Part shown: in pieces, positions 7,086 to 59,194 of the stretch
How the letters are laid out: each line of letters opens with the position of its first letter
Position numbering within the stretch: the first letter of the stretch is position 1
Origin: Calvatia gigantea
Lineage: Eukaryota > Basidiomycota > Agaricomycetes > Agaricales > Lycoperdaceae
Assembly: GCA_025093985.1 (NCBI GenBank)
Contig: JACAAK010000020.1
Location: 167,798-231,797 of the forward strand
Length of the DNA: 64,000 bases
Direction of reading: 5' to 3'
Notes under the pieces: generated by a model
What the model was told of the DNA's origin: nothing
Database searches by the model: none
What the model saw: only the letters and a program-made list of their open reading frames with translations
Position numbers and translations under genes: made by a program

Positions 7086-7633
7086 TGTCATGACCCACAC
7101 ACATTCGCCCGCTCTCACCCACTTCCCCCGCTTGTAGTCATCGTTACCTTAGTCCGGCTGCATTGGGTTGCTCTTCATTCTTTCTGTCAGTCAGTCCGAT
7201 ATCCTGTTTTCTATATTAATCTCTATCCCCTTCAACTTCTCCACTATCGCCTTATAGTTAAAACTTGATTCCGGTGTCTTGTTAGGCGGCCGCCCTCAGT
7301 GGCCGTCCATTCTTCGTTCACCATTACTTTCGTACTTCCCGCTTTTTAGACTAGTATATAAACCTAGTCCCCACACTTGTAAATCCTTAGTCTGATTATC
7401 AACCACGATTACACCCTCTGATTCTGTTCCTCTCTGTCTCTGTTCCTCCGACCCTCTGACCCCACTCCCTCCTGAAATACGGACTTCGACGACAGCAGGA
7501 AGGCACAACACATATGTTGAAGCCGCTGAGTCCAAATCTCGTACTCGTCCGAATTCACCCGCTCCGTACGTTCTCACCCGACGTCACCTGGCGGCTAACC
7601 TTGGCCGATATCCCGCGTAACCTGATTGTAACA
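7086..7633 (+). repeat. Family B 5' LTR (B1)
   Basis: 548 bp, TGTCATGACC...TTGTAACA. It contains the TATA box TATATAAA (7355-7362) and, 34 nt after its start, AGTCTGATTAT (7389-7399), the predicted 5' end of the RNA. A U5 block with GTTGAAGCCGCTGAG resembles the U5 of family C, suggesting sister families. Confidence 0.95.
7355..7399 (+). promoter_or_regulatory. LTR promoter B: TATA box and predicted RNA start
   Basis: TATATAAA is followed 34 nt later by AGTCTGATTAT. The latter is the exact reverse complement of the segment 2 nt inside the LTR, so it should be the RNA 5' end used as self-primer. The same spacing is seen in families A, C and D. The start site is inferred, not measured. Confidence 0.75.
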
Positions 7634-12952: not shown

Positions 12953-14107
12953 TCACTGGGCAGTTTCACCCGACTCAGCCGCTTCCTCCACTTCTTCCTT
13001 CTTTTCCTCTTCACTCTTGTTTCCATTGTCTTCCTCTATCTCCATTACTACCTCCATTTCCTCCTGGGTTTCACCCGGCATGTGGGCCTCCTCGTTGTCA
13101 TCCTCGTTGTCATCATCATCGTCAGCCAGCCCCAGGGCATCCATCACCTGCTGAACCATCAGTCCAATGCTGCACTGATACCCACCATTCTTGATGACTG
13201 CAGGCCTCAACATTCCTCCTGAGCTCATTCGCCTGCTCCAGCCTGCAGCAACTGCTCCTCTCCAACCTCAATCAGCCTATCCATCCTTACCCCCTGATCC
13301 TCCATAATGGACTGCAATCTGCTCCAGGATATCGTTTTGGCGAGTAAGGAGAGCCGTGAGTTGATTATTGCTGACCCAAGGTACTTGAGTGGTGACAGTG
13401 ATCGGCCGACGATGGGCGGGTGGAAGGCGACAAGCCTTCTTTGACAGCGAACATTCGAGGCACTTGGTGACCTCGCGACTAGAACGGCCATTAGCACAAT
13501 CACTGGGAAGCTAAGTGCCACTTACCTTGACGTCGACTCCCTGATTGTGCAAGGATCACCGTTGTCGAGACATCGCTCGCACTTATTATGGCCACCCATC
13601 TTGACCTTCTTTCCGTCGACTGCAGGTGGCTCGTCCTCAGCCCGATTCCCTCCAGTCCGGGTCTGGCTTGCCCCCGAAATCTGACTCTTCATCAACACGT
13701 CTCCTTTTCAATGATGGCGGCACCTTCCCAACCCACTCCTTCGTGATCCTCTGTTGACGTCGCTTCTCGGCCGTTATCTTCTTATCCACTTCATCAGCGG
13801 CCTTATGCTTTCCTTCGCGTCTGCTCGCCTGCGCCAACTCCTCACGTTGCTCCTCCTCCCGCACCGCTCGTTCCTCGCGTTCCTTCCTCTCCCACTCCTC
13901 TTGCTCCTCTTGCTCCTTCTTTTCCCGTGCTTCTCATTCCACCCGTTCTTGCCTCTCTCACTCCTCGTTCTCCTCCAATTCGCGCAGCTCGCGTTCGGCC
14001 TGCCGTTCCGCCTCCTCCTGCCTTTCCAGTTCGAGTCGCTTGCGTTCACACATGGCCTCTAACTCGACCCGTTTCTCTGTGGCAGTTTTCTTGGTAGGGC
14101 TGGACAT
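12953..14107 (-). pseudogene. Antisense gene of family B: coiled-coil, zinc-cluster protein, one intron
   Basis: Read on the minus strand from the ATG at 14107, it opposes pol. N-terminus: about 150 residues very rich in Glu, Arg, Lys and Gln, a long predicted coiled coil. Then come CERCLDNGDPC, a 47-nt intron (13479-13525, GTAAGT...CTAG), CLECSLSKKAC, a helical middle and a Glu/Asp-rich tail. The cysteine pattern is CX2CX6C-X13-CX2CX6C, near the Gal4-type Zn2Cys6 binuclear cluster (normal central loop usually shorter). Two in-frame TGA, a one-base shift near 13640 and a stop near 13225 break it. Family C carries the same gene with the intron in the same place. Its role is unknown; DNA binding or control of the element is inference. 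Confidence 0.8.
13479..13525 (-). other. Intron of the family B antisense gene
   Basis: 47 nt, donor GTAAGT and acceptor CTAG on the minus strand. It lies between the two cysteine triplets and is phase 2 (AG joined to T). Removing it puts CERCLDNGDPC and CLECSLSKKAC in one frame. The family C gene has a 47-nt intron at the same codon position, which makes chance unlikely. Confidence 0.8.
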
Positions 14108-14239
14108 GGTAGTGGTCGAGGTGGTGGTGGTTAGAGAAGAGAATGGGACCGTAAAATTTCCAAGGTGATGAAATTTACATGCACCATCAAAAGTCTAATT
14201 GGAGATTCCCACGGTCCGATTTCACGGCCTCAAGGGCTC

Positions 14240-14258
14240 AGCCCTAATGGGGGGATAC
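14240..14258 (+). promoter_or_regulatory. Polypurine tract region before 3' LTR, family B
   Basis: GCCCTAATGGGGGGATAC directly precedes the 3' LTR. Family C has GCCCTAAGGGGGGAATAC at the same place. Such G-rich tracts prime plus-strand DNA synthesis. Confidence 0.75.
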
Positions 14259-14806
14259 TGTCATGACCCGCGCACGTTCGCCCGCTCTCACCCGCTTCCC
14301 CCGCTCGTAGTCATCATTACCTTAGTCCGGCTGCATTGGGTTGCTCTTCATTCTTTCTGTCAGTCAGTCCGATATCCTGTTTTCTATATTAATCTCTATC
14401 CCCTTCAACTTCTCCACTATCGCCTTATAGTTAAAACTTGATTCCGGTGTCTTGTTAGGCGGCCGCCCTCAGCGGCCGTCCATTCTTTGTTCACCATTAC
14501 TTTCGTACTTCCCACTTTTCAGACTAGTATATAAACCTAGTCCCCACACTTGTAAATCCTTAGTCTGATTATCAACCACGATTACGCCCTCTGATTCTGT
14601 TCCTCTCTGTCTCTGTTCCTCCGACCCTCTGACCCCACTCCCTCCTGAAATACGGACTTCGACGACAGCAGGAAGGCGCAACACATATGTTGAAGCCGCT
14701 GAGTCCAAATCTCGTACTCGTCCGAATTCACCCGCTCCATACGTTCTCACCCGACGTCACCTGGCGGCTAACCTTGGCCGATATCCCGTGTAACCTGATT
14801 GTAACA
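14259..14806 (+). repeat. Family B 3' LTR (B2)
   Basis: 548 bp, matches B1 with 13 transitions. CpG at several places is kept here and lost in B1, or the reverse, so both decayed separately after insertion. Right flank CCATG is copia-1 gag. Confidence 0.95.
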
Positions 14807-20324: not shown

Positions 20325-21313
20325 ATGCCTGCCTCTCAACTAACCACATCGCTATTGACTCCCTTGTCTACCCCACTCCCACCAGAATCTCATCCCTACC
20401 ATTCCTAGAACTAGGCAGCAGCAAAGCACCAGCTCCCCAAGGAACCTGCTTCAACCTCACTAAAACACCATCCCCAGCACAAGGCCTCCTCAAAGCCCTA
20501 CTCAAGGACATTGACAAGGCAACCAACAGTGAAATCGAAAACATCACTGCCCAGAACAAACAACTAGTGGTGAACTGACACATCACCCTCGCCACCACCT
20601 GCATTACCTTTGCCAACATGTACACTGGATTCACCAATGCTTCCTCATCCACCAACCAGCACATCCCCACCATCTTCCAAGCACTAGACCAGTCCACCCT
20701 CACCCCTAATGAACGAGATCGTGTCCAAGGACTCCAAAGCCAAATTGACTTGGGCCTTGAGGTCTTTAACCACCTCGACATTGCTAACATATTCCTCAAA
20801 CTCACCAATATAGCTATGAAGTTACTTGGGAGAGACAAGTCGAATGAGGACCCTGACATCAATACCCTGGTTGACAGGATTCATATCACCCTCTCTGAAT
20901 TACATGACACCATTAACCTCATGCCATTAACCTGCGCCAACACCCCCATAGATGAAGAAACCATGGTCTTTATGAAAGAGAAAGTCAATGCCCTCCGTCG
21001 CTTCATAAAAACCATTACACCACCACAGCTTGTATTGGTTTTTCTTCTGCCCACAAGATTCTGCACTGTATTGCCAGGACAAGAAAAGAACCAACACTAT
21101 TGGAACTCAATAGTCAAGAACTACTGGGACAGCTCCACCACCACTGACTTCCCATACAATGGCATCCCAGTCCCTATCTGACAAGACAGACGAAGCTACT
21201 CACCCATCTTCTTAGCACAATCCAATGATGGAAAGTTCCTCATTGCTGCCACTAAGAAAGCACTTGCAGCCACCATAGTAAATGGAGACTTCAACAAGCT
21301 TCCTGAGGCATGA
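20325..21313 (+). pseudogene. Family A ORF3, unknown function, copy 2
   Basis: The ATG at 20325 (MPASQ) is 18 bp after the pol stop. A one-base deletion about 15 nt downstream shifts the frame relative to copy 5. The main open part is 20618-21181 (YTGFTNASSSTNQHIPTIFQ, FIKTITPPQLVLVFLLP, HYWNSIVKNYWDSSTTTDF). The end KLPEA and stop at 21311-21313 match the other copies. No known domain. The motif PPQLVLVFLLPTRF is the most hydrophobic stretch but is too short and polar-flanked for a confident membrane helix. Confidence 0.8.
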
Positions 21314-33929: not shown

Positions 33930-34753
33930 TCAATCCTCACGCCTTCCCTCTTCTATATCATCCTCCTTTTCCCTGCTTTCCTCCTCATTTTCTTCACTCC
34001 CTTCCTTACCACTACTACCATTTCCCTTCTCTTCCTTATCCAAGTCCATCTGCTCACCCCCTTTTCACACTGGTTGTGACAGCCCCTCACTCTGGTCTTC
34101 GATGTTGATGTCACCCACCTCATCCACATGCCTCTGGATATCTGTACCAGGCAGCCATTCTGCAATCTGCCCTGGATATTCAGCCCTTCCTGTGTGCAGA
34201 GGATACCGTTGACTCACTACCAGACCAAGAGTGTGGAACTCCTCTCCATTTGCAATGGTCTCCCTCAAGATTGTGGCCGAATTGCAGGTATCATGTTCTC
34301 GGTATTGGGACTCATTTGCCATCCACACATTCTGCTGATGCAATAAAATGATGATTTTGTTGAGGTATAGGGGTTCTCTTCAAGTGTGGGCACGAGTCAG
34401 TTGAGATGTCTTGTGAGGATGTTGGGATTCAAGACCTTGGTGCTCCCACCCAGTGGCTTATACTTTTGCTTGCCCTTGACATGAGTGATGCATTTGGTGG
34501 TAACTCGGCTAAGGACTTCTCAGCTTAATGATCAACAGGAAGAGGCCACACTTACTTGGAGCAGGTCTGTCCAGGTTGACACCTGATACCCATGTCAATG
34601 CAGTGCTTGCAGGAGTTGTCCCCATCCATGGGAACATGCACCTGCAGCTGAACCTCCTCCTCTTCCTTCTCATCCAATGACCCTGGTGCATAGTCCTCTT
34701 CATCCAAATCCTCTACCCTCAGCCATTTCCTCAATCAGCTGGGACCCGCTACC
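33930..34753 (-). pseudogene. Antisense zinc-cluster gene, family C copy 3 (truncated)
   Basis: Starts inside exon 1 (truncated by LTR D3): an acidic stretch, CKHCIDMGIRC, a 47-nt GTAAGT...TTAG intron, then the second cysteine triplet reads CITHVKGKQKY, so two cysteines are lost. The middle domain (WMANESQYREHD, ILRETIANGEEF, HTGRAEYPGQIAEWLPGTD) is uninterrupted and preserves the empty site of the Helitron found in copy 1. The tail is acidic, stop at 33930-33932. Confidence 0.8.
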
Positions 34754-38045: not shown

Positions 38046-39037
38046 TCATGCCTCAGGAAGCTCGTCAAAGTCCCCATTAACTATGGCAGTGGTGAGGGCT
38101 TTCTTGGTGGCTGCAATGAGGAATTTTCCACTGTTTGATTGTGCAAAGAAGACAGGTAAATGGCTTTGGCAATCTTGGTGGATAGGGACTGGAACACCAT
38201 TGAATGGGAAGTCGGTAGTGGTGGAGCTGTCCCAGTAATTCTTGACTATTGATCTCCAGTAGTGTTGGTCCTTCTCTTGTCCTGGTAGTACAGTGTGGAA
38301 TTGTGTGGGGGGGAGAAAAACTGATATGAGTTGTGGTGGGGTAATAGTTTTTATGAAGTGTTGGAGGGAATTGACTTCTTCTTTCATGGAGACAGTGGTC
38401 TCTTCATCCATCGAGGTATTGCTATAGGGTGGTGCAGGGTTAACTGTGTCATGCAATTCAGAGAGGGTGATGTGGATCTTGTTGACTAGGGTATTAATGT
38501 CAGGATCTTTGGCTGATTTGTTCCTTCCAAGTAAATTCATGGCTACATCAGCAAGTTCAAGGAATATGTTGGCGAGGTTGAGATATTTGAAGACTTTGAG
38601 TCCTAGATCAATTCAGCTTTGGAGACTCTGGGTATGGTGTTGTTTGCTGGGGATGAGGGTGGATTGGTCTAGGGCTCTGAAGATGGCTGGGATGTGTTGG
38701 CTGGTAGAGGAGGATGCATTGGTGAATCCTACATATATGTTGGTGAAGGTGATACAGGCAGTGGTGAGAGTGATATGGTGGCTCATGACTAGCCATTTGT
38801 TTTGGGCAGTGATGGTTTCTAGTTTACTGTTGGTTGCTTGGTCAACATCCTTGATTAATGCTTCGAGGAGTCCTTGTGCTGGGGATGGTGTATTGGCAAG
38901 GTTGTAATGGGTTCCCTGGGGGGCAGATACTGTACTTTCCCATTGCCTGGTTCTGGGAATGGTAGAGAGGAGATTTTTGTTGGGGTGGGGTGGATGAGGG
39001 AGTCAATGGCAATTCGGTTGGATTGAGAGGCAGACAT
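38046..39037 (-). pseudogene. Family A ORF3, unknown function, copy 4
   Basis: The ATG at 39037 starts MSASQSNRIAIDSLIHPTPT, nearly as in copy 5. A frame change occurs after 38855. The C-terminal open part 38540-38046 (164 codons) has HFIKTITPPQLISVFLPPTQ and HYWRSIVKNYWDSSTTTDF and ends DFDELPEA with stop. This is one of the cleaner ends of the gene and shows selection-like conservation relative to copies 1, 2 and 5. Function not recognised. Confidence 0.82.
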
Positions 39038-40036: not shown

Positions 40037-40659
40037 TGTTAAGTGTGGGTCATGCGGATGAGATGACCAGAGTCTAGATGCCCAGGGATGATGCGTGGAT
40101 GTGGACGAAGATGGACGAAGTGGGTGAACTCAGGAAGACCATGGCTTCAATGTATGTGTTGCTCCCTCCTGCTGACAAGTGGTCCTAACTTCAGAATAAG
40201 GGACAAGGACAGAGTCAGAGATGGAGACAGAGACAGAGACAGAGGTAGAATAGAAGTAGCATGTTGCTAAGTAGATTTCAGACTGAGGATTACAGGCAAA
40301 GTAGCTATGGTTTATATACACGAGGAAGTATGGTTCTACAAAAGGAAACTACTATGACTTCAGGTGCAGGCCAGGTATGGCTGCTAGATAAAAACACCAG
40401 GAATGCAACTAGCTAAAAGGAATAAGGTGAAACAGGAACGATATGAATGGTAAAAGGAATTGCAAGGGAAATAGGAGTAGGTATGATGACTGGAGAAATG
40501 TACAAGGAGGATAATCGGAAATTAACATCAGACATAATAGTAAGAATGGAGAGTGGGGGAGACGGGGGAGAGTGGGTGAGAGCGAATGGTAAATAAAATA
40601 TAAAGTATAGTCCAGGTAAGAGCAGGTGAAGTAGGTGAGTGCATATGTGGGTTGTGACA
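40037..40659 (-). repeat. Family C LTR C1 (3' LTR)
   Basis: 623 bp; minus strand TGTCACAACC...CACTTAACA. Preceded by the purine tract CCCTAAGGGGGGAATAC. A (GACAGA)n-like hexamer run lies at about 40223-40246. Confidence 0.93.
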
Positions 40660-40796
40660 GTATTCCCCCCTTAGGGCTGAGCCCTCGAGGCCATGAAGGT
40701 GTCGTGGGAAATGGAGTTGAAAAATTTGATATGGGCATAAGATCCGCACTTTTGAAAAATTTTCCTTTGCTTGCCTCTTGACTTCCTACTACCACC

Positions 40797-41321
40797 ATGC
40801 CTTCCAAGACCGCTGCCCAACTACAAGCCAAACTTGAGGAGAAACGTGAATGCACCAGACTTCAGCACAAGCAGGAGGAAGAGGACGAGTGCAGGTTGAT
40901 TGTGGACCTCGCTGCTGCTGAAGCCAAAGAAAGAGTGGATAGGGAGAAGCACAAAGAGGAGGAGAAGAAGAGGCACAGATGAGGAGAGAAAATGAGAGGA
41001 GGTGAAGAAACATGATGAGCAGAAGAAGCGGCTTGAGGAGGCAGCATATAAGAAAAGGGAGGAGCAAGAGGAGGAGAATGTGAAGGAATGACAATGTAGG
41101 AAGGGGAAGGCCTGGGAGGAACCAGTAGTGGGTCCCAGCTGATTGAGGAAACAGCTGAGGGTGGAGGATTCAGACAAAGAGGACGATGCACCGGGGTCAT
41201 TGGACGAGGAGGAAGAGGAGGAGGTTCAGCTGCAGGTGCATGTTTCCATGGGTGGGGACAACCCCTGCAAGCACTGCATCAATATGGGTATCAGGTGTCA
41301 ACCTGGACAGACCTGCTCCAA
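40797..41321 (+). pseudogene. Antisense gene of family C copy 1, exon 1
   Basis: The ATG at 40797 starts MPSKTAAQLQAKLEEKR; the first 60 residues are Glu/Lys/Arg-rich and would form a coiled coil. A frame change between 40981 and 41143 and several stops follow, then an acidic segment (EEEEEVQLQVHVSMGGDN) and the first cysteine triplet CKHCINMGIRC, ending QPGQTCS before the intron. It runs opposite to pol, converging on it. The promoter would lie in the 137 bp between the LTR and the ATG; I saw no clear TATA box there. Confidence 0.8.
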
Positions 41322-41368
41322 GTAAGTGTGGCCTCTTCCTGTTGATTATTAAGCTGAGAAGTCCTTAG
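41322..41368 (+). other. Intron of the family C antisense gene
   Basis: 47 nt, GTAAGT...CCTTAG. AA from exon 1 plus C from exon 2 complete an Asn codon (phase 2). Same length and same position between the two cysteine triplets as in family B (13479-13525). Confidence 0.82.
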
Positions 41369-42058
41369 CCGGGTTACCACCAAATGCGCGACTTGCATCA
41401 AGGGCAAGCGAAAGTGTAAGCTGCCAGGTAGGAGTACCAAGGTCTCGAATCCCCACGTCCTCATACAACATCTCGACCAATTCGCAACCACACTTGAAGA
41501 GAACACCCTATGCCTCAACAAAATCATTGTTTTATTGTGTCAGCAGAACACGTGGATGGCAAATGAGTTCCAATACCAAGAACATGATACCCACAATTTG
41601 GCCACGATCTTGAGGGAGACCATTGCAAATGGAGAGGAGTTTTGCGCCCTCAGCCTGGTGGTGAGTCAACGGTATCCTCTACACACAGGAAGGACTGAAC
41701 ATCCAGGACAGATTGCAGAATCATTATAGAGGGGGATGATGGTGTTTCTGGGGTCCTTGCTTACAAATTTTAGTCAGCATTGGTAATCCTGTGCTACTTT
41801 TGCACAGCCTTAGTCAGAATTGGTCAGCTTTGACTAAGCAAAAGTTGTTCCCTTCTTATATTCTTTGCATCAAAAACACTGCCACCACATCAAACACTGC
41901 CACCTCGGTGCTTTGGCAGACCAACACTTAGTCTGTAACAAAATTCAACAACCTATATGGTGTAAAATCCTTCTACTCTCTAATGCCTGAGGGCTGGCCA
42001 GATTATCAAGTTGGCCAAAAAGCTGGCCAGATTATCAGGTTGGCCAAAGATTATTGAT

Positions 42059-42670
42059 AAGATAATTATACATTAACATAGACTGATAATAAGACTGAGT
42101 AGATTGGTATAGCCTGATAGTAGATAAGAATGGACTGATAGTAAGATAACAACTGATAATGAGATTAACTTGGCTAACACTAGCTGATAAGGTGATTATA
42201 CAAGTTAACATTGATTGATAATGAAGTTGAGTAGATTGATAGTAGATAAGAATGGACTGATAGTAAGATAACAACTGATAATGAGATTAACTTGGCTAAC
42301 ACTAGCTGATAAGGTGATTATACAAGTTAACATTGATTGATAATGAAGTTGAGTAGATTGATAGTAGATAAGAATGGACTGATAGTAAGATAACAACTGA
42401 TAATGAGATTAACTTGGCTAACACTAGCTGATAAGGTCAAGTTAACATTGACTAATAGTAAAGTTAACTAGATTAGCATAGACTGATAGCAAATAAGGAT
42501 ATACTGATAAAAACTGATAACAAGACTAACTCAGCTAACATTGCTGATAAGGTGACTATGAAAGTTAACATTGACTGATAATAAAGTTGAGTAGGTTGGT
42601 ATAGACTAATAGTAGATAAAGATATACTGATAACAACTGATAATAAGATTAACTTGGCTAATACTGGTGA
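42059..42670 (+). repeat. Tandem repeat, 122-bp unit, inside the Helitron
   Basis: Two almost identical 122-bp units (42181-42302, 42303-42424) flanked by diverged ones. CTAGCTGATAAGG recurs at 42180, 42302 and 42424. Within the unit the motif CTGATA recurs, suggesting growth from a shorter repeat. Not a CRISPR: units are contiguous, without unique spacers. Confidence 0.9.
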
Positions 42671-42720
42671 TTCCAACACTTCTAGAACAACTATTTGGGA
42701 AGTATCCTTAGGGACACAAT

Positions 42721-43155
42721 ATTAGGAGAAAGATACATTCATACATGCACTGGTCAGGTTACAGTTGGGGAAATTGATGACACTAAGATATGAATCTACA
42801 AGAGGAGAAATAATAGTGGAAAAAAAAAGGTAAGAGAGGGACAATGGTGTGGGACAATCTATAAGAGGAGAAATAATAGTAGAAAAAGAAGGAATAAGAG
42901 GGAAACAATAGTATAGGGTTATAGGATTAGGAGAAAGATACATTCATACATACACTGGTCAGGTTACAGTTGGGGTAATTGATGACACTAAGATATGAAT
43001 CTATAAGAGGAGAAATGATAGTAGAAAAAGGAGGAGTAAGAGGGGGACAATAGTATAGAGACACAACATTAGGAGAAAGATACATTTATATATGCACTGG
43101 TCAGGTTACAGTTGGGGTAATTGATGACACTAAGATATGAATCTATAAAGAAGGA
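42721..43155 (+). repeat. Three diverged direct repeats inside the Helitron
   Basis: ATTAGGAGAAAGATACATT begins blocks at 42721, 42926 and 43068; each continues with CACTGGTCAGGTTACAGTTG and GATGACACTAAGATATGAAT over about 100 bp. Spacing is uneven (205 and 142 bp). No coding frame. Confidence 0.85.
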
Positions 43156-44537
43156 AAATGATAGTGAAAAAGGAAGGGATAAGTGGGAGACAATAGTGTA
43201 GGCTGATAAATTTTAGTCAGAATTTGTCAGAATTGGTAATCCTGTGTTGTTTTTACATAGCCTTAGTTAAAATAGCATAGGATTGGTCAGAACTGACTAA
43301 ATATTTGTAAGCCTTCCTCCCACTCTATGATACTTTACACAGTATTTGTTAGAACTGACTAAACAAAAAAGCCCATACTATTGTTTTACTTTTTCATGCT
43401 TCAGAGATTATCACACTAATAATTTACTTAATATAACATAGGCTGATTATAAAATTGAGTAGACTGACACTGGCTAATAGCAGATAAGGATAATATAACA
43501 TAGGCTGATTATAAAAGTGAGTAGACTGATATAGACTGATAGCACATAAGGATTTACTGACAGTAAGATAACAAGTGATGATAAACTAATAATGAAATGA
43601 ACTTGGTTAACACTAGCTGATAAGGTAACTCTATACATCAATATAGGCTGATAGCAAGGTATACAAAATAAAGATACACTGATGGTAAGATAATAACTGA
43701 TAACAAGGCTAATAAGATAATTATAGAAAATAACATAAGATAATTGAAAAACAAAGTAGATTGACATAGGCTGATAACTAACTGATAACAAGGCTAATAA
43801 GGTAATTATGTTGGCATAGGCAGTACTTTAGTATAGACAGTAGTTTTGTGTTCTTAGTTACTTTTATTTGCAAAGTTATTCAAGTTATAGTCTAAGTGGA
43901 TTAATTTTTGTGTTAGTATTACATAGATCTTTAAAGTAAAATACAAGGATGAAGAAAAATAATAATTAAAAATACAATGACAAAGTATAATTCCCATGTT
44001 CAAACTAATTCTCTATGTAATTAACTTTTTATGTTTTATGTAGAATATGTACTCTGAAAATGGATGTAATACTAAGAGAAAAATTAATGAAGTTAAACTG
44101 TGAGTTAAATAATTGTAAGAATTGAAATAACTAAAAGGACTAAAGTACCACCCGTGCCGAAGGCACGGAATCTGGCCTAGTGGCTGTCTGGTGCAGATAT
44201 CCAACAACATGTGGATGAGGTAGGTGACATTGACATTGAGGACTGGGGTGAGGGGCTGTCACAACCGGTGCGAGAAGGGGGTGAGCAGATGGACTTGGAT
44301 AAGGAAGAGAAAGGAAACGGTAGTAGTGGAGAGGAAGGAAGTGAAGAAAGTGTGGAGGAGAGTGGAGAAAAAGAAGATAGTGTGGAAGAGGGTGTAGAAG
44401 GGGGCCAGCATGAGGATTGAGGGTGTGTGGGTGAACGCAGCTTTCCTTGCTCCTCATGATTTTGATGTTTAATAAAGTTGAATGTCCAATAAAAAAAGTC
44501 TGTCCATGAATAAGAGTGAAAATAAGTCCATTAAGTG

Positions 44538-47500
44538 TTACAAAGAATGCAAGGGACCAGGCTTAGCAGGATAAGCTGTATGGAAATCTACCACAAGTTC
44601 AGCTGCATGCTCTAATTCAGTAGCAGGCAGCCAAGAAGACTCTTCTTCAGTATCCTCATAACCCAACCAAATGACCTTGTATAATAACTTGCAGGCATAT
44701 TGATGGTTGATCTTCGAGTCAACAATGTGGGCGATTTTGTACTCCAGCTCGCCTTCGACTTCAATGGGCGGAGGAGGCGGGTCAGAGCGGCCGTCAAATG
44801 GGTTAGGTGTGGCAGGTTCAAGCATCAAAACATGGAATACTGGGTGAATGGCACATATTGAGTCAGGTAAGCATAGAGTATAAGAAACAGAACTGGGTTG
44901 AGCGATAATCTCATAAGGACCCAAATACTTTTCTGAGAGTTTCTTCGATGGTCGAGTCATGCGGAAGAACTGTGCCTTAATGAAAACCTTTTGCCCAACT
45001 GTGAAGTTAGGTGCGGGTGTCCGGCAGGCATCAGCAGATGACTGGTACCGTTCTTGAGCTTGCTTGATCTCAGATTTGAGTACTATGTGGAGTTCATCGA
45101 GGTTGATGACAAATTGACGTGCATGTGCGGACGCCAAGTTGCAGTTCCAGGTAGACTGTGATATTGGGATGATAGCCTTTATTAGTGAAGAATGGGGAGA
45201 CACCAGTAGTGGCACTAGGAGCATTGTTATAGGCAAACTCAGCTAGTAGCAGTAACTCAGCCCAGTTGTCCTGCTGGTAGTTGCAGTAGACGTGGAGGTA
45301 TTGCTTGAGAGTCTAGTTAGTCCATTTGGTTTGTCTGTCACCCTCAGGGTGATACCCAAAGGTGAAGTGTAACTTCATGTCCAGTGCTTGTCCAAGCAAG
45401 CAGAAGAAGTGCGAAATGAATTTGGAGCTGCGATCGGATGTAACATGTTTGGGAACACCATGTTTTGAGAATACATGAATGACAAATAGGTGGGCAAGTT
45501 TGGCTGAGGTGATGGTGTCGTGAGTGGGAATGAACAAAGATTGCTTGGTGAGGCAATCAACAATAACAAAGATAGTGTCATAGCCAGAAGATGTGGGAAG
45601 TTTCTCAATGAAGTCCATAGAGATAGAGTTCCATGGCCGTTCAGGAATGGGGAGCTGCTTGAGGTTTCCATAAGGTTGGTGTCATTGTGGCTTAGAGCAC
45701 ATGCAGGTGACGCAGGATTTGCAGAAATCTTTGACTGTTGTGCAGATTTTGGGCCAAGTGTAATCACATCAGACTAACTCCAGAGTCTTGTTCTGACCAA
45801 AGTGTTCAAAAAGGATGTGATTGTACTTGTACTGTAGAATGTGAAGTTGAAGATTGTCAACATTGGGAATGTAGATCCTGTTGTCAAGGTGGAGAAAACT
45901 GGATGAATCTACAATCCAGTGTCCTTCAGGTTTGGCTAGGTGTTGAGCCACAGTCAGGTCTTGCGGAAGAGATGAAAGGATGTTGGAATGCAGCTGATTG
46001 AGGTCAATGATCGTGGCTGCATAAAGGGAAGGGGTATAAAGATAAGTAGTGCGGACAGAAGCTGCAAGTTGTTCATGAGTAAAGACTAGACGGAAGTTGT
46101 GAGGATTGACTGTAGCATAGACATTATTCTCCCCTTTAGGGTAGATGTCCCATCATCTAGTTAAAGTGTTGGGCTTCATACCAAGTCGGCCGGGGCAAAA
46201 GCAGATAATGAGGTTGAACTGTGACAGGAATTTGGACCAGTGGGCTTGACGGCAGGTGAGGATTTTAGTGGTGCAGAAGTACTCCAGGTTCTTATGGTCA
46301 GTGACAACGTTGATGGGAAGGGGAGCACCTTTGAGGTAATGCTGCCAGATCCTAAATGCTTCGAAGATAGCCAGTAGTTCCTTGTCATGTATGTCATAGT
46401 TCAACTCAGCCAAGGTAAATGTGTGGGAATGGAAGGCCATGGGGTGAACTTCACCATCTTTAGTGACGATAGAGAGGATGGCAGCTAGCGTGTAGTCAGA
46501 TGCGTCGGTCTTGACAATGATCTGAGTGTCAGGAATCCAGTGGGTCAGGATAGGAGCGGAGGTGAAAGTGTCCTTCAATGATTGGAAAGCCTCTTGACAT
46601 TTATCATTGAAGTTCCAAGGAATACCCTTGCAGGTAAGGCGGGTGAGAGGAACTACAATGTCAGAGTAGTTATAAATGAAGCAATGATAGAAGTTGGTGA
46701 AACCTAAGAAGGACTGTATGTCCTTGACCTTCTTCGGTTCTGGCCAGTCCTGGATAATCTTGACCTTGTCCTCAGACATCTTGAGACCATCAGGGGAAAG
46801 AACGTAACCAAGATATTCAACTGTGTCAGACTCGAATTCACACTTATCCATGCGGGCGTAGAGACTGTTCTGCCTAAGCCGCTTGAGAACCTCGCAGACT
46901 TGCTTGCGGTATATGCTGATGTCATTGGAATAGATGAGTATGTCATCAAGATAGACCGTAACGCAGACATCTAAGAGATCTTTGAAGATGTCATTCATGA
47001 ACCGCTGAAAGGCGGCAGGTGTATTAGTAAGGCCGAAAAGCATAACGAGCCACTCAAACAATCCGTAGCAGGTTCGGAAGGCTGTTTTCCATTTGTCACC
47101 TTCTGCGATGCAGTGTCACAACCCGTACATGCGCTCACCCACTTCACTCACTCTTACCCAGACTATACTTTATATTTTATTTACCATTCGCTCTCACCCA
47201 CTCTCCCCTGTCTCCCCCACTCTCCATTCTTACTATTATGTCTGATGTTAATTTCTGATTATCCTCCTTGTACATTTCTCCAGTCGTCATACCTACTTCC
47301 GTTTCCCTTGCAATCCCTTTTACCGTTCATATCATTCCTGTTTCACCTTATTCCTTTTCGCTAGTTGCATTCCTGGTGTTTTTATCTAGCAGCCATACCT
47401 GGCCCGCACCTGAAGTCATAGTAGTTTCCTTTTGTAGAACTACACTTCCTCACGTATATAAACCATAGCTACTTTGCCTGTAATCCTCAGTCTGAAATCT

Positions 47501-48920
47501 ACTTAGCGATATGCTACTTCTATTCTACCTCTGTCTCTGTCTCTGTCTCCACCTCTGACTCTGCCCTCGTCCCTTATTCTGAAGTTAGGACCACTCATCA
47601 GCAGGAGGGCGCAACACATACGTTGAAGCCACGGTCCTCCCGAGTTCGCCCGCTTCGTCCATCTTCGTCCGCATCCACGCATCATTCCGGGCGTCTAGAC
47701 TCCGGTCGTCTCACCCATGTGACCCACACTTAACATGCAGATGAGGTGATAAGCATGGTATAGGTCAATCTTGGTATAGATGTGGGCTTTGCAGGGCAAA
47801 TCGAGTAGGTCGGATATGAGAGAAAGGGGGTAGTGATCCTTCTTGGTAATGTGGTTGAGACCTTGGAAGTCGACACACAAATGGAGCGAGCCATTCTTTT
47901 TCTTGACAAAGAGGACAGGGGCTCCATGAGGAGAGTTGGAGGAACAGATAAATCCGATAGCAAGGTTTTCGTTGATGAATTCATGTAGAGCCTCTAGTTC
48001 AACTTGAGATAGTGAATAGATGGTACCAACTGGTGGTTGGCCACCTTCTTCAAGATTGATCTGGAGATCATATGGCCGATGCAGGGCAAGCTTGTCAGCC
48101 TTCATTTTACTGAAGATGTCAGTGAATTCACAGTACTCTTCCAGAATATTGGACCAATTGTCCTGGAGTTCCTCAACAGTGGCTGAGAAAGCTGTTATAG
48201 ATGGGTTGTTGAGATTGAGGCTATACTGAACTGAACCAGGGAGGCAAGAGGCATGGAGGAAGGCAGTGGCATTAACCAGTGAGATGTGCAGATGAGCTAC
48301 ATCAACCGTGCCTGTAACAGAAGTGGCAGAAGAAGCAGATGGTGAAGACTGTGAGGTGACAGATGGGGCAGCTGAAGTGGATGCCGCAGAGGATGCAGGT
48401 GTGACTGGAATGGACGCACTGCGAGCAGAAGTGGCAGGAAGTTCAGGCTGAAGTGGATGGAAAGTGATATGGCCCAGAACCCAGTCAATCGATGGATTGT
48501 AGTGGGTGAGCCAGTTATATCCAAGAACCACAGAGCAGGAAGAGTCAAGCCAAGTGACGTAAAAGTCCAGAGTCATAGATTCACCACAGTCAAAGGTAAC
48601 AGGAAGCTTCACTAGTTCAGTAATGTATGTATTAGATGAGCCATCAAAGAGACAAAGTTCAATAGGAGGAATGGGCATAGTTGGAAGATCATATGAATGT
48701 ACAAAGTCAGAGTCCACGAAGCAATGGGTAGACCCACTATCAACAAGAGCCTTGAAGCAGACAAGATCAGATGAAGTGGATGAAGAAACAGAAGGGGAAG
48801 TGAGATAGAGCTGCAGGGAATTGGGGTTAGAAAGAGCAGAAGTGTTGAGTCAAAAACACTCTGTGGCACAGGTGAGTTCAATGCAGTCCTCAGCCTGTGC
48901 AGAGTCCTGAGGACTGCCAC
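44538..48920 (-). pseudogene. Family C pol, copy 1: protease to chromodomain, split by a solo LTR
   Basis: From 48717: protease ALVDSGSTHCFVD (DSG at 48733-48741), RT with FVKKKNGSLHLCVDF and, after the solo LTR, LFGLTNTPAAFQ and YLDD (46942-46953). RNase H has KTDASDYTLA and TDHKNLEYF. Integrase has the zinc finger, SMDFIEKLPTSSGYD, SDRSSKF and DRQTKWTN; the C-terminal part is 45236-44538 with LGPYEII and chromodomain (LLYKVIWLGYEDTEEESSW), stop at 44538. The open stretches 48717-47741 and 47061-46153 are long. Stops near 46150, 45770 and 45310 break it. This is the best family C pol here. Confidence 0.92.
47114..47735 (+). repeat. Solo family C LTR C2 with target duplication TGCAG
   Basis: 622 bp, TGTCACAACC...CACTTAACA, flanked by TGCAG at 47109-47113 and 47736-47740. 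It interrupts RT of the C element on the opposite strand. CpG-rich compared with C1, so probably a younger insertion of the same family. Confidence 0.96.
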
Positions 48921-50499
48921 TTATTTTTCTGAGCTTTTTTCAAAGCTCACCCCAACCACTTCAGCCTTGCAGGTGACAGTCTTTGCAGTTGAAATGGCTT
49001 TCTTCCTACACTCACTAACCTTGTGGCCGGCATTGCCACAGAACAGGCAGAGGTTGTTGTCAAGGTGGCACTTGCATTCTTTGGTAGTCAGCTTGCCATC
49101 CTTGCCAAGTTTGTCAGATAAGTTGGGTTTAGTGGGGGAGGACGATTTGGTGGGTGTGGAGGAGGATGGGGTAGTGTTGGTGGGTTTGTTTGAGGTGTTG
49201 CCCTTGCTGCTGCTGTGGTTGGGCTTGTTGCTGTTGCTGTTGTTGTTGTTGCTGTTGCTGTTGTTGCTGTTGTTGTTGTTGCTGCTGGCCTTGTTCGAGA
49301 AAGGTCCAGGGTTGTTACCCGACTTCCTATTGAGAGAAGTGGACACCGATTTGGCCGCTTCCTTCCCACAGGTCTTCTCGCATTGACATTCCCAATAGCG
49401 ATTATCGAGGATGATGGCTGCTTCACACATTTCGTTGAATGAGGTGGGCTTGCCATTGGGGCGAGAAGATAGGACATCTTGGAGACGATCAGGGAGGCCT
49501 TTGTAGTAGCAGTAGCAGAGGATGTCATTGCTCCATCAAAGTTGGGACGAGAGCCGCATGAATTTGACATTATAGGTGGTGATCTTCTCACTGTGCTTTA
49601 TCTTCAGATTCTCCAGGAGTTTGGCTGATTCGCCCTTCAGGTTGGCTACACCGAAGTTGGTCTTGAGCTCAGTGGTGAACTCATCCCAGTTGGTGGACCA
49701 GGCATGGGATATGCCTTGAGTCTCTTCCTGGTCAATGCCAGTTTCAAACCAGTGAAGAGTGATGTTAGTGAGGAAGGTGAGGGTGAAGTTGACCTTGGTG
49801 GTATCAGATGTGAATTGTGTAGGGTTGGCGCAGAAGTAGAGTCGACATTGGAAAATGAAGTGAGGAAGGTCATCGGGGTTGGCACTGCTGAATGGTTTGG
49901 GTTCGCAGGCCTTAGTATGGGGAGGTTGAGGAGGCTGGGGTGGCTGAGAGCGGGCACAATCATCTATGGCATTAGCGAGGGATCTAATAGTACAGGCCAG
50001 AGGGTGATCAAGTCCCCAATGGCCATGCAGCTCACTAGTGCTTGTTTCATCATCACCATCATCATCATCATCTGATGGTTCCTTGGGTTTGTCATCGCCT
50101 CCAGGCCCATTGCCTCCACCATCATCAGAATTGGGGTAAGAGTAATCGGCATATTCTAGACCATTGTTCTGGTCGTCGCCATAGTTGTCTTCATCATTAA
50201 TACCATAGTTACCACCTACCAGGGTAGCCAGGATCTCCAGGTGGGACTGTGCCACCTATACTGTTTCCACTACTTGGGCCCTGAGGTGGGCTGGAGCTAT
50301 GTTCAGGAAGTTCCTCCCAGATCGGCTCTGCGAAGGGGTTAGGGGAGTTTTGCGGGAAGTTGCCTGGAATGGATAGGTGAGACTATTTCAATCTCTGAGT
50401 TCTGGGGATGGATTGGGTTGATGAAGGGGTTCATTTGGGATTGTTGCGAAGGGACTGATGAACGGTTGCACCAGTCTTAGTTCTGACAAATGTAGCCAT
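48921..50499 (-). pseudogene. Family C gag, copy 1
   Basis: The probable ATG at 50499 (MATFVRTKTGATVHQ) is supported by position after the primer site. After two stops, a long open part 50255-49536 holds an acidic Asp/Gly stretch and the capsid domain (NFTLTFLTNITLHWFETG, ELKTNFGVANLKGESAKLL, YNVKFMRLSSQL). After a TGA come a Ser/Asn-rich stretch encoded by AAC/AGC repeats (about 49205-49290), and one zinc knuckle CLFCGNAGHKVSEC (about 49055-49014). Stop at 48921. Same order as family B gag. Confidence 0.88.
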
Positions 50500-50549: not shown

Positions 50550-51172
50550 TGTTAAGCGTAGGTCATGCGGGTGAGACGACCAGAGTCTAGATGCCCAGGG
50601 ATGATGTGTGGATGCAGATGAAGATGGACAAAGCGGGCAAACTCGGGAGGACCATGGCTTCAATGTATGTGTTGTGCCCTCCTGCTGACGAGTGGTCCTA
50701 ACTTCAGAATAAGGGACGAGGACAGAGCCAGAGGCGGAGACAGAGACAGAGACAGAAGTAGAATAGAAGTAGCATGTTGCTAAGTAGATTTCAGACTGAG
50801 GATTACAGGTGAAGTAGCTATGGTTTATATACGTGAGGAAGTGTAGTTCTACAAAAGGAAACTACTACGACTTCAGGTGTGGGCCAAGTATAGCTGCTAG
50901 ATAAAAACACCAGGAATGCAACTAGCTAAAAGGAATAAGGTGAAACAGGAATGATATGAATGGTAAAAGGGATTGCAAGGGAAACAGGAGTAGGTATGAC
51001 GACTGGAGAAATGTACAAGGAGGATAATTGGAAATTAATGTCAGACATAATAGTAAGAATGGAGAGCAGGGGAGACAGGGGAGAGCAGGTGAGAGTGAAT
51101 GGTAAATAAAATATAAAGTATAGTCTGGGTAAGAGCAGGTGAAGCAGGTGAGCACGTGTGTGGATTGTGACA
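50550..51172 (-). repeat. Family C LTR C3 (5' LTR)
   Basis: 623 bp, TGTCACAATCC...CGCTTAACA on the minus strand. TATA box 50824-50831. Right flank CATAT opens the unassigned stretch. Confidence 0.93.
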
Positions 51173-53569
51173 CATATGCTGGAATATGTATGCAGCTCAG
51201 CTACTTGTCTTTTTTGATAGTTCCAGACTTTTGCCTCAAAGCTACTGTATATAATAGTGAGGTCTCAAAGAGTAATCCAGTGACAAAGTGCGAGAGCTCA
51301 ACTATTTTATGTTGGAAGCTATTTCTGCTATTCTGAGATGTGTCATTTCTTTCTTCCTTTTAAATGAGGTGATTCACAAGATCACACTAGTGATATTTTT
51401 CTTAAGTGAAAAGAGTGATATGCTCCTGCTCTCATCTCCATATCATCCATAAAGAATGGCTCACTTGTTGTTTAGAAGCAGTGTTTAAAGCCAGCAGTGT
51501 AGAATATGTGGCATACCAGCATTCAATGCATTTTGCAAGGAGAATGAAGTCAGAAGTACTAACCCACATATCCTTCTGTCAAAACCAAGGTTCACATCAT
51601 CTCAAATAATGGCAATCACAAGGACTCCTCCAGCACCAAGCTCTGATAGGAGCAGCTATAGGATTTCTTAAAGAGTTTGTTGGCATGTTGTACCTTGGTG
51701 CTCAAACTAGAACCTCTTTCTCAATTGTAATTACTAAATGGTGCACTCAAGTCCTAATTGTAGACAGTGACTTCCATAAAGTCAAACTTCCTTAAAGCTC
51801 CCTTTGTTCTTCCCAGCCATTGGCAGACAAAGTAGTATGTACCATGCTCATTCCTGCTTTTAGTGACATAGAACATTTAAAGTCAGTGGCGGGTCTCAAG
51901 CTTGGGTGCAATAATGCACAGAACTCAAGCAGAGTAACATTGGTGCTGGAAGTAGGATGCAATATATAATGATGCAGCACCTCTACAAGAGAAATAGTAT
52001 ACTGCAGCAACCTTGTGCCAGCATAGTATTTTAACTACATCCTGAATGTTTTCTGAAAATGACATAATGGTGGAATATCCAGCTCATTATCCTTCTTCCC
52101 TTATTTCCCTGCTGCAAGAACACTTGAAGTGTTCTTCTCCTTGCCATCTCCTTTAGATAATTTGCATGTGCAGCTACTGCTGCAACTTGGGTATAATCCC
52201 CATGGTTTTATTGGTGCTGCTGACCTTGCGGCCACTGTCTACCATACCAATATAAGTGCTGCAAGTGCTGCCACCCATCACCTTAGCATGGTGTAAAGCA
52301 CTGATGCACATGGGCTATCCATAGAAGGAATAAGCAGTAGTTGAGTTGATGTGGAAGGATAAAGCATAAAGGCCTATTGAAGGAATGAATAATGGACTTT
52401 TCAAAGATATTGCGTATATCCCAGCTATAGAACTAAGCAGGACTCAGCAAGTTATAGCTGCCAACTGAGCAGATCAAAGTAGCTCAGGTTCTTGCTTATG
52501 GTGTGTTTGGGACTCAAGGAGAGATTAACTCAATCAACTTAAAACACAAGAACACAAGTCTTATGGTTTTACCTGACACTGCAGTTCTTATTGCAGTCAA
52601 CAAGATATATTATCCTGGACACAGCAGAATGACCAGTGAAGTGGAGCATAATGCTCAGTATAAATAATACAATGTATAAGCTAATTACTGAGGTGGATTT
52701 GAAGGGAACCTGGAAAGCCTGAAGAGTCATTGTCGATTAGAGAGAGAACATCAGAATGGAGGCAGAGCAACCAGAGTGGAATAGTTCTGCTACAACCCAA
52801 AAGAGTGGGGAGCAGACTGTAAGAGGCTGAACAAAACCAAAGGTAATGATTTACCAAGACTAATCCAAGAATAGGTGAACAATATATCACCATCATGTCA
52901 GACTGCTGCGCATAGTGCATATGTTCACTATATGGGTCAGATAGGATATCAAGTGGACCAAAGGTACCACTGTCTCCTAGGTTGAATATGACTGTAGCCT
53001 TCTCAAACTCTACTAGCATTACTAATGTGGTCTGAGTAAGTGGTGGTCAGGGCCCATAACCTATTGAGAGAATGAGATAACATCCCAATCATAACACTAC
53101 TATGCTAGTGTATGCATGAGCAGTGGAGGATAGTCATACTTACCCAAAGATGGTCCAAGGGAGATCCAGAGGATCCAAGAGAGGCTTACTAGCCCATCAA
53201 CTCCAAAGAGGAGGGCAAAGTATGCTTAAGAGAGAGTGGATGTTTGTAGAACCAGTAAGAGGTGTCTATACTCAAAGACATACATAATTCATACTACATA
53301 GAGGTACTTATACTAAGTTCTAGGTGATGTGACCATACAACCTGAAACAGGGAGGTAACACTATCTACCAGTAGCATAAAGGGTGTATACTGTATATGAT
53401 GCATGTACTAAAAGGTTCCATATGGAGTTATTTAACCAGCTACAGTAGTGCAGTATATTACTCTTGTATGTAGTCCATAGTTCTAGAGTCCATTATTATT
53501 GACCCTCTGAAAGTGAAGTACTTGAGACCTGTTACAGCTATAAATAGACTGAACCAACATAGTGGTATG
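51173..53569 (+). other. 2.4-kb stretch without recognisable gene
   Basis: Only short, broken open frames on both strands; the longest (53019-52681, minus, 112 codons) has no motif I know. No family LTR ends were found. The minus strand has a copia-type primer site at 53050-53061, so part may be an old copia. The sequence at 53560-53570 joins directly into family C protease. Confidence 0.5.
53050..53061 (-). promoter_or_regulatory. Possible copia primer-binding site (half initiator-tRNA type)
   Basis: Minus strand GGTTATGGGCCC, complementary to the initiator Met-tRNA anticodon stem-loop (GGGCCCATAACC). If real, a copia LTR would lie to its right (about 53064-53560) and gag to its left, but neither could be proved. 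Confidence 0.4.
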
Positions 53570-57928: not shown

Positions 57929-59057
57929 TCAATCCTCATGCCTTCCCTCTTCCACATCATCCTCCTTTTCTCTACTTTCCTCCTTATTTTCTTCACTCTC
58001 TTTCTCACCACTACTACTGTTTCCCTTCTCTTCCTCATCCAAGTCCATCTGCTCACCCCTTTTTCACACCAGTCATGATGGCCCCTTACCCCAGTCTTCT
58101 ATGTTAATGTCACCCACCTCATTCACATGCCTCCAGATATCTGCACCAGGCAGATGTTCTGCAATCTGCCCTGGACATTCAGCCCTTTCTGTATGCAGAG
58201 AATACCATTGACTCACCACCAGGCCAAGGGCACAGAACTCCTCTCCATTTGCAATGGTCTCCCTCAAGATTGTGGCTGAGTTGCAGATATCATGTTCTTG
58301 GTATCAGGACTCATTCACCATCCACACATTCTGTTGACACAATAAAACAATAATTTCATTGAAGCAGAGAGTGTTTTCTTCAATTGTGGTTGCAAATCAG
58401 TTGAGATGTCATGTGAGGATGTTGGGATTTGAGACCTTGGTGCTCCCACCTGGCAGCTCACACTTTTGCTTGCCCTTGACACAAGTTGTGTATTTGGTGG
58501 TAACTCGGCTAAGGACTTCTCAGTTTAATGATTAACAGGAAGAGGCCACACTTACTTGGAGTGGGTTTGTCCAGGTTGACACCTTATACCCATGTTGATG
58601 CAGTACTTGCAGGGGTTGTCCCCACCCATGGGAACACACATCTGCAACTGAACCTCCTTCTCTTCCTCCTCACCTAATGATTCCAGTGCATCATTCTCTT
58701 TGTCTGAATCCTTTACCCTTGGCTTTTCCTCAATTGGCTGGAACCCACTACTAGTTCCTCCCAGGCCTTCCCCTTCCTACATCAACATTCCTCTGTGTTC
58801 TCCTCCTCTTTTTTCTCCCTTTTCTTATGTGCCACCTCCTCAAGCTGCTTCTTCTGCTTGTTGCATTTCTTTGCCTCCTCTCATTTCCTCTCCTCTTCTT
58901 TGTACTTCTCCCTATCTACTCTCTGTTTGGCTTCAGTGGTGGCAAGGTCCACAATCAACCTGCACTTGTCTTCTTCCTCCTGTTCATGCTGGAGCCTGGT
59001 GCATTCATGTTTCTCCTTGAGCTTGGCTTGTAGTTGAGCAGCAGTCTTAGGAGGCAT
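57929..59057 (-). pseudogene. Antisense zinc-cluster gene, family C copy 2
   Basis: The ATG at 59057 starts MPPKTAAQLQAKLKEKHEC with a Glu/Lys-rich coiled coil. The first triplet reads CKYCINMGIRC (about 58605-58573), then the GTAAGT donor (near 58556) and the same intron. The second triplet is poorly kept. The middle has ILRETIANGEEF-like residues (MRETIANGEEFCALGLV at 58267) and the uninterrupted Helitron target. Stop at 57929-57931. Stops and frame changes make it non-functional. Confidence 0.78.
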
Positions 59058-59194
59058 GGTGATAATAGGAAGTCAGGAGGCAAGTAAAGAAAAACTTTTT
59101 CAAAGTGTGGGTCTTATACCTGCATCAAATTTTTCAACTCTGCTTCCCACAATACATTTATGGCCTCAAGGGCTTGGCCCTAAGGGGGAAATAC

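What the first reader, a model, noticed from the sequence alone, without database searches (positions are those of the whole stretch)
40797..44420. Gypsy elements with a spliced antisense gene for a Zn2Cys6-like coiled-coil protein
Between pol and the 3' LTR, families B and C carry a gene on the opposite strand, converging on pol. Seen in four copies (12953-14107; 33930-34753; 40797-44420; 57929-59057): Glu/Lys-rich coiled coil, CX2CX6C, 47-nt intron, CX2CX6C, helical middle, acidic tail. Established: Gal4-type fungal regulators use CX2CX6C-X5-12-CX2CX6-8C. Here the central gap is 13, slightly longer, and the intron falls in it. Inference: an element-encoded DNA-binding regulator with an acidic activation-like tail, perhaps acting on the LTR or chromatin. 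I know of no description of this arrangement.
Basis: partly seen in the sequence, partly recalled or inferred. Interest (0 to 1): 0.92.

Follow-up and report, generated by a model that had tools for sequence, protein, structure and literature searches.

The report
Spliced antisense zinc gene in retrotransposons
Two families of a fungal jumping gene carry, on their opposite strand, a real and selectively maintained spliced gene for a zinc-motif protein that may control the element's own activity; comparable antisense genes are known in plants and one other fungus, but we found none described with this protein.

Summary
In detail: all four copies lie at the stated coordinates, with a 47-nt GT-AG intron between two CX2CX6C motifs. 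The host is a 46-Mb fungal assembly. Exon 2 was listed at 41 places each for families C and B, some being split hits. 79 of 84 B/C-type pol-tail places have the gene on the opposite strand within 4 kb. At least 8 of 60 fetched loci keep a complete open gene of 367-372 codons. The gene frame is under purifying selection: pooled dN/dS 0.30 against 0.41-0.97 in the other five frames. The families share detectably only the six-cysteine core (hhalign E 1.3e-9). AATAAA follows the stop in 47 of 49 recognised copies. No intronless copy was found. It fails the tests for a Gal4-type zinc cluster (Pfam cut-off, linker length); a half-swapped cluster is only hinted at. Antisense genes between pol and the 3' LTR are known in plant Gypsy elements and in Botrytis Boty (brtn), so this is a new variant of a known kind. 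Most likely it is a nuclear, nucleic-acid-binding regulator of the element; that step is inferred.

The parts
40797..41321 (+). Family C copy, exon 1 of the antisense gene (frame broken between about 40980 and 41142 in this copy)
41266..41298 (+). First CX2CX6C (C-K-H-C-I-N-M-G-I-R-C)
   Evidence: frame read
41322..41368 (+). 47-nt phase-2 intron, GTAAGT...CTTAG; retention gives an immediate TAA stop
41385..41417 (+). Second CX2CX6C (C-A-T-C-I-K-G-K-R-K-C)
   Evidence: frame read
41369..41720 (+). Exon 2, first part
41721..44180 (+). Helitron-like insert in exon 2 (TC start, hairpin, CTAG end, between A and T)
44181..44420 (+). Exon 2, rest: acidic tail and TGA stop
44471..44493 (+). Two AATAAA polyadenylation-type signals on the gene strand
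40671..40692 (+). PPT-flank motif shared by families B and C
40037..40659 (-). 3' LTR of the family C element
50550..51173 (-). 5' LTR of the family C element
44538..50255 (-). gag-pol of the family C element (broken frames; gag, RT-RNase H, SH3 and chromo-like pieces)
12953..14107 (-). Family B copy of the antisense gene, intron 13479-13525 (frames broken)
7086..7633 (+). 5' LTR of the family B element
14259..14806 (+). 3' LTR of the family B element
33930..34753 (-). Family C copy cut off at its 5' side; intron 34509-34555
57929..59057 (-). Family C copy, intron 58509-58555 (frames broken)

Best explanation
The two Ty3/Gypsy (chromovirus-type) families carry a third gene, read from the opposite strand between the polypurine tract and the 3' end of pol. 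Shown by sequence: tight linkage to pol, complete open copies, a conserved 47-nt intron, AATAAA after the stop, codon constraint, and a six-cysteine core shared by two families whose other parts barely align. Inferred: transcription starts between the 3' LTR and the ATG (a TATA-type box lies 59-61 nt before the ATG in half of the family C copies tested); the mRNA is spliced and ends before pol; the protein enters the nucleus through basic clusters, forms dimers or oligomers through its N-terminal charged stretch, binds nucleic acid (most likely the element's own DNA) with a zinc-held six-Cys core, and uses its acidic tail to change transcription of the element. The intron can persist only because the sense genomic RNA presents it backwards, so it is not spliced out before reverse transcription. 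Keeping or splicing the intron would switch between a product ending after the first triad and the zinc protein. In kind it would act like HTLV-1 HBZ, without homology.
For: Linkage: 79 of 84 pol-tail places, and 75 of 82 exon-2 places pair with a pol tail; 5 of the 7 unpaired are second pieces of split hits. Gene between pol stop and 3' LTR in all 8 fetched elements; both LTRs complete in 7 of 8 (92.8-98.6% alike), the eighth cut at the fetched edge. Intron: 57 of 60 loci aligned, 56 GT..AG; spliced-junction patterns 0 in the genome, though each family's pattern is in all its spliced models. Selection: own frame 0.30, other frames 0.41-0.97; transversions only 0.41 against 0.51-1.18; zinc region pN/pS 0.15, 0.13 without CpG transitions, on small counts. 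B versus C: only the six-Cys core aligns, E 1.3e-9. AATAAA within 110 nt of the stop in 22 of 24 (C) and 25 of 25 (B) loci whose stop was recognised, against 2.3% of random pieces. TATAA[AG] 59-61 nt before the ATG in 12 of 24 C loci and 68-69 nt before it in 6 of 26 B loci with the PPT-flank motif; in one more locus of each family the box is at the same offset but no ATG was recognised.
Against: No RNA or protein data. The segment fails Pfam's Zn_clus cut-off. The family B core has net charge 0 (family C +9), weak for a DNA binder. On the same three copy pairs the gene is less constrained than pol: 0.30 against 0.21, and with transversions only 0.38 against 0.08, on few changes. One of the 8 complete genes has lost a core Cys. 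No binding site is shown; the PPT-flank motif may only serve plus-strand priming. TATA-type boxes are missing in about half of C and most of B loci tested.
Confidence: 0.5

Rival explanations
1. A real antisense protein, but not a transcription regulator: it binds the element's RNA or cDNA, or tethers the pre-integration complex to chromatin (nucleocapsid-like, or a partner of the pol chromodomain).
For: A six-Cys core plus a long charged stretch suits RNA/DNA packaging; pol of both families ends in a chromodomain above Pfam's cut-off; the core's charge differs between families.
Against: Acidic tail and separate antisense reading point to a regulator made apart from gag-pol. Not tested directly.
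Confidence: 0.2
2. A counter-silencing protein: it blocks host methylation or heterochromatin on the element, which explains fast divergence of everything but the zinc core.
For: Copies within a family differ almost only by transitions, 75-81% of them at CpG in five pairs, as expected from methylation. Between B and C the gene's pN is 0.508 against 0.099 for the pol tail, typical of accessory genes in conflict.
Against: No domain similarity to any Pfam family; fast divergence could be relaxed constraint outside the core.
Confidence: 0.17
3. The antisense RNA is what matters (dsRNA or interference with sense RNA); the reading frame is incidental.
For: The gene would overlap the sense genomic RNA; antisense non-coding RNAs are known in other elements (PMC7264820, passages).
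Against: Codon-level constraint in one frame, complete open copies, a shared core, conserved splice sites and AATAAA.
Confidence: 0.05
4. A host zinc-cluster gene captured recently and carried as a passenger.
For: The genome holds ordinary Zn_clus genes (19 places).
Against: None of those 19 places is among the 82 listed places (compared by eye); present in both diverged families with the same intron position and phase; under constraint.
Confidence: 0.05

Closest known systems
[quoted passage not shown] PMC7264820 (passages and section 5), PMC11963269 (passages and Discussion)
   Same: Same place and orientation, present in most copies, suspected nuclear or DNA-binding regulators; Grande gene23 has its own promoter and a nuclear product; PvRetro13 and some Retand ORFs have SMC-like domains.
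   Different: No zinc core and no intron met in what was read (word counts: 'intron' and 'zinc' 0 in the Retand paper, 'intron' 0 in the review). Retand is a non-chromovirus lineage; these elements end in a chromodomain. Sequences were not compared.
Boty-like retrotransposons of Botrytis cinerea with antisense gene brtn (Zhao et al. 2011; paper not held, known from passages of PMC7264820, PMC8365987, PMC4227169, PMC5987419)
   Same: Fungal Gypsy element with a chromodomain and an antisense gene; PMC7264820 places it between pol and the 3' LTR.
   Different: Another fungal group (ascomycete, recalled); brtn sequence and domains not seen here, so homology is untested.
Gal4-type Zn(2)-Cys(6) binuclear cluster (PF00172)
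   Same: Two CX2CX6C triads; one with the Gly, one with the Lys positions of the class (recalled).
   Different: Linker 13, half order looks reversed, below Pfam cut-off, intron between the halves, no fungal transcription-factor domain found.
HTLV-1 HBZ (recalled; mentioned in PMC11963269)
   Same: Antisense gene read from the 3' LTR side, nuclear regulator; a spliced form is known (recalled).
   Different: bZIP protein (recalled) of an animal retrovirus; analogy of arrangement only.

Membership tests
Antisense aORF of Ty3/Gypsy elements (pol to 3' LTR) | ORF antisense to gag-pol, between pol stop and 3' LTR | tested here: met
   8 of 8 fetched elements
Antisense aORF of Ty3/Gypsy elements (pol to 3' LTR) | Present in most copies of the family | tested here: met
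   79 of 84 pol-tail places of this clade
Antisense aORF of Ty3/Gypsy elements (pol to 3' LTR) | Conserved about as well as other element proteins | tested here: inconclusive
   Constrained (0.30) but less than pol (0.21 on the same pairs), and far more diverged between B and C (pN 0.508 against 0.099)
Antisense aORF of Ty3/Gypsy elements (pol to 3' LTR) | Antisense transcription and nuclear product | not testable with these tools
   No RNA or cell data; basic clusters only
Gal4-type Zn2Cys6 (PF00172) | CX2CX6C-X5-12-CX2CX6-8C | tested here: not met
   Linker 13 in 7 of 8 complete models; the eighth lacks a core Cys
Gal4-type Zn2Cys6 (PF00172) | Pfam curated score (21 bits) | tested here: not met
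   16.8-18.2 bits for native two-triad segments, 18.6 for the B first triad alone; full-length C and B proteins: no family at E 0.05
Gal4-type Zn2Cys6 (PF00172) | Lys-rich triad first, Gly-bearing triad second (recalled) | tested here: inconclusive
   In native segments the first triad aligns to the profile's second half (positions 15-37) in B and C and in B alone; C first triad alone and both second triads alone match nothing; swapped constructs mixed
Gal4-type Zn2Cys6 (PF00172) | Binds zinc and DNA | not testable with these tools
   -
Chromovirus-type Ty3/Gypsy element | LTRs, gag, RT-RNase H, IN, chromodomain | tested here: met
   Gag, RT, RNase H above cut-off in window pieces; SH3_Tf2-1 and Chromo above cut-off in a B and a C pol tail, integrase core only partial and below cut-off there (17.1 and 22.6 against 32.6); both LTRs complete in 7 of 8 elements
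Chromovirus-type Ty3/Gypsy element | 5-bp target-site duplication | tested here: met
   6 of 8 fetched elements, read by eye; one had its 5' LTR cut at the fetched edge, one showed none
brtn of Boty | Sequence similarity to brtn | not tested
   Paper not held; sequence not available

The most novel reading that the evidence does not exclude
The gene encodes a half-swapped (circularly permuted) binuclear zinc cluster, whose intron sits in the new linker, and binds the GGGCYRAGCCC element beside its own polypurine tract, so that a retrotransposon carries its own antisense, splice-switched transcription factor: a fungal counterpart of HBZ built on the fungal zinc-cluster theme.
Probability: 0.13. 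Interest if true: 0.82.

Novelty: new variant of a known kind. Interest (0 to 1): 0.62.

Why it matters
The review read here says the functions of antisense genes of Gypsy elements are not known (PMC7264820). This one adds a zinc-type core that survives while the rest of the protein diverges, an intron that can persist in a retroelement only when read from the antisense strand (a natural version of the antisense-intron retrotransposition marker, recalled), and many copies open to direct test by RNA-seq. It would make the question 'do these elements encode their own regulators?' testable in a fungus.

Tried and rejected
Gal4-type membership: rejected. Half-swap: short-linker swaps scored above native (20.0 against 17.9 for C; 22.1 against 16.8 for B), but a longer-linker swap of C scored only 13.9 and of B 18.3, and swaps keeping the native linker gave 12.4 against 18.2 (C) and 18.1 against 17.6 (B). 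Three host clusters as controls fell from 38.5, 34.7 and 33.8 bits to 20.2, 27.9 and 18.0 when swapped. So half-swapping is a hint only. Sense-strand coding in the same stretch: rejected; 1 of 8 elements shows a sense open stretch of 200 codons or more there (287). The other frames have dN/dS 0.41-0.97 and 4-27 stops on average; the frame at 0.41 averages 7 stops.

Relatives elsewhere: protein collection none (E up to 0.001, E up to 1; both seeded by short words). GTDB genome contigs none, but these are bacterial and archaeal and say nothing of fungi; viral contigs none. Pfam none for the full-length C and B proteins. PDB with the B profile: six hits, all designed repeat proteins, best E 9.6e-5, over the stretch after the core; C segment: one hit at E 0.14. 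Paper searches; statements on what is not in print rest on these ten. A recombinant-looking B2 copy (L049) was kept and dropped; its pol tail was not recognised. Automated models were found for 40 of the 60 loci and not for 20; one of the 20 (L032) proved complete when read directly, so 8 of 60 complete is a lower bound.
Full report
Setting. The window is G000:C13:167798-231797 of a 45.95-Mb, 77-contig genome. Its repeats include Ty3/Gypsy elements whose pieces match Retrotrans_gag, RT, RNase H, SH3_Tf2-1 and, below cut-off in the window piece, Chromo. Pol tails from one fetched B and one fetched C element match SH3_Tf2-1 and Chromo above cut-off (Chromo 25.8 and 33.5 against 25.1) and part of the integrase core below cut-off. 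An RT query from the window finds named basidiomycete proteins among its relatives (Moniliophthora, Ganoderma), so the host is probably a basidiomycete; it is not named here.

The observation. Every window copy is damaged: the focal one by a frame break in exon 1 and by a 2460-bp insert in exon 2 (41721-44180), which starts TC, ends in a hairpin plus CTAG and sits between A and T, as Helitrons do (recalled). Its 3' end occurs 26 times in the genome (up to 2 mismatches), 0 in the reversed control.

Genome-wide. Searching the own genome with exon 2 of each family gave 41 places for C and 41 for B; at least five of these are second pieces of split hits. The two families differ: the proteins are about 30% identical, while the pol tails differ at only about 10% of nonsynonymous sites. 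A pol-tail query scored 150 of 920 candidates. 84 places have 59% identity or more, some being two pieces of one tail; 79 of them have the gene within 4 kb on the opposite strand. Of 82 exon-2 places, 75 pair with a pol tail; of the 7 that do not, 5 are second pieces. The other 66 scored places (32-39% identity) belong to more distant elements and were not examined for antisense genes.

Gene models. Among 60 fetched 3-kb loci (the best 30 places per family), 3 C and 5 B loci contain one uninterrupted two-exon gene of 371 and 367 or 372 codons; 7 of the 8 keep all six Cys. The intron is 47 nt, phase 2, in both families. It aligns without gaps in 57 of 60 loci; of these, 56 keep GT..AG and all 57 keep the TAA met if the intron is not removed. 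Patterns for the spliced junction occur nowhere in the genome, although all 8 spliced models contain them. So no copy of the antisense mRNA was found back in the genome, and the intron travels with the sense RNA, where it is backwards.

Element anatomy. Eight 9-kb stretches around complete genes were fetched. In all eight the gene lies between the pol stop and the 3' LTR. Seven have both LTRs complete (92.8-98.6% identical); in the eighth the 5' LTR is cut at the fetched edge. Six show 5-bp target-site duplications read by eye. In 2 of the 8 the sense gag and pol frames were open as well. On the gene strand AATAAA occurs within 110 nt after the stop in 22 of 24 C and 25 of 25 B loci whose stop context was recognised (of 30 each), against 2.3% of random pieces; copies are related, so this is not an independent count. 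TATAA[AG] was found in the 180 nt after the PPT-flank motif in 13 of 24 C loci, always at offset 50 and in 12 of them 59-61 nt before the ATG, and in 7 of 26 B loci, always at offset 53 and in 6 of them 68-69 nt before it; in one locus of each family no ATG was recognised after it. 7.1% of random pieces contain the box. Beside the polypurine tract (recognised by eye) a 21-nt motif, TTAGGGCYRAGCCCTYRAGGC, is common to both families: 65 sites in the genome, 0 in the reversed control. 60 of these lie upstream of a listed gene on the same strand, 2 more lie before damaged B genes, and 3 were not examined.

Selection. Between two B subfamilies (3 x 2 complete copies) pooled dN/dS is 0.30 in the gene frame and 0.97, 0.72, 0.90, 0.41 and 0.94 in the other five; with transversions only the gene frame gives 0.41 and the others 0.51-1.18. 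Leaving out a recombinant-looking copy, whole-gene pN/pS is 0.34 (0.31 without CpG transitions), and for the zinc region 0.15 (0.13), the latter on only 8 (2) nonsynonymous differences summed over three non-independent pairs; the stretch after the core is the least constrained over all changes (0.50; 0.44 without CpG transitions). On the same three pairs pol tail and gene give 0.21 and 0.30, or 0.08 and 0.38 with transversions only; within families, where decay dominates, pol gives 0.57 and 0.64 and the gene 0.41 and 0.53. Between B and C the gene's pN is 0.508 against 0.099 for the pol tail, so outside the core it evolves fast. Profile comparison of the B and C segments finds one match, 50 columns covering the six-Cys core, probability 96.4%, E 1.3e-9, 40% identity.

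Decay. Copies within a family differ almost only by transitions (for example 173 to 0 and 373 to 4); in five pairs 75-81% of the transitions are at CpG, in two B1-B2 pairs 55-59%. The TGA stops and Arg-to-Cys/His/Trp/Gln changes in the window copies fit that.

What the protein is. The full-length C and B proteins match no Pfam family at E 0.05. The two-triad segment gives 16.8-18.2 bits to Zn_clus, cut-off 21, and the match is of the first triad to the second half of the profile; the B first triad alone gives 18.6, while the C first triad and both second triads alone match nothing in Zn_clus. By eye the second triads have the Lys positions of a Gal4 first half. Swapped artificial segments gave mixed results: clearly better only with short linkers, not with native linkers. 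The native C segment matches in two stretches; so do two of three swapped host clusters and the swapped B segment, but not native B. I treat half-swapping as a lead. Basic clusters precede the core; the last 57 residues carry net charge -17 to -25; the B core is neutral and the C core +9. No relative was found in the protein collection or viral contigs.

Against the literature. Antisense ORFs between pol and the 3' LTR are established in plant elements and reported for Boty of Botrytis cinerea (PMC7264820, passages and section 5). Retand elements carry antisense TRP28 ORFs predicted to bind DNA, proposed as regulators, and often tandem repeats in the same interval (PMC11963269, passages and Discussion). 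brtn is mentioned in PMC8365987, PMC4227169 and PMC5987419 (passages); its original paper is not held. The listings of ten searches (given in Tried and rejected) showed no title or abstract start on a spliced or zinc-type antisense gene in a fungal element. I therefore call this a new variant of a known kind.

Mechanism and certainty. That it is a genuine, spliced, element-encoded antisense protein gene: about 0.93. That the product works in the nucleus on nucleic acid and regulates the element: about 0.5. Rivals are a packaging or tethering factor, a counter-silencing factor and a functional antisense RNA. Neither RNA nor protein evidence could be obtained here.

Noticed in passing
41721-44180: Helitron-like insert (TC start, 3' hairpin, CTAG end, A/T target) holding tandem arrays with periods 122, 142 and 62 nt; its 3' terminus occurs 26 times in the genome.
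   Followed up: partly
L069-L076: Copies within a family differ almost only by transitions, 75-81% of them at CpG, as expected from cytosine methylation.
   Followed up: yes
40671-40692; 14226-14247; 59162-59183: A 21-22-nt palindrome-bearing motif next to the polypurine tract is common to families B and C: 65 sites in the genome, 0 in control.
   Followed up: partly
20618-21181 and 38046-38540: A different chromodomain element family has an extra ORF on the sense strand after the chromodomain, with similar copies in the window.
   Followed up: no
L049 (G000:C34, near 4145400): One B2 gene copy carries B1-like sequence in its middle, suggesting recombination between subfamilies.
   Followed up: partly
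47114-47735: An LTR in opposite orientation sits inside the pol region of the focal element, probably a solo insertion.
   Followed up: no
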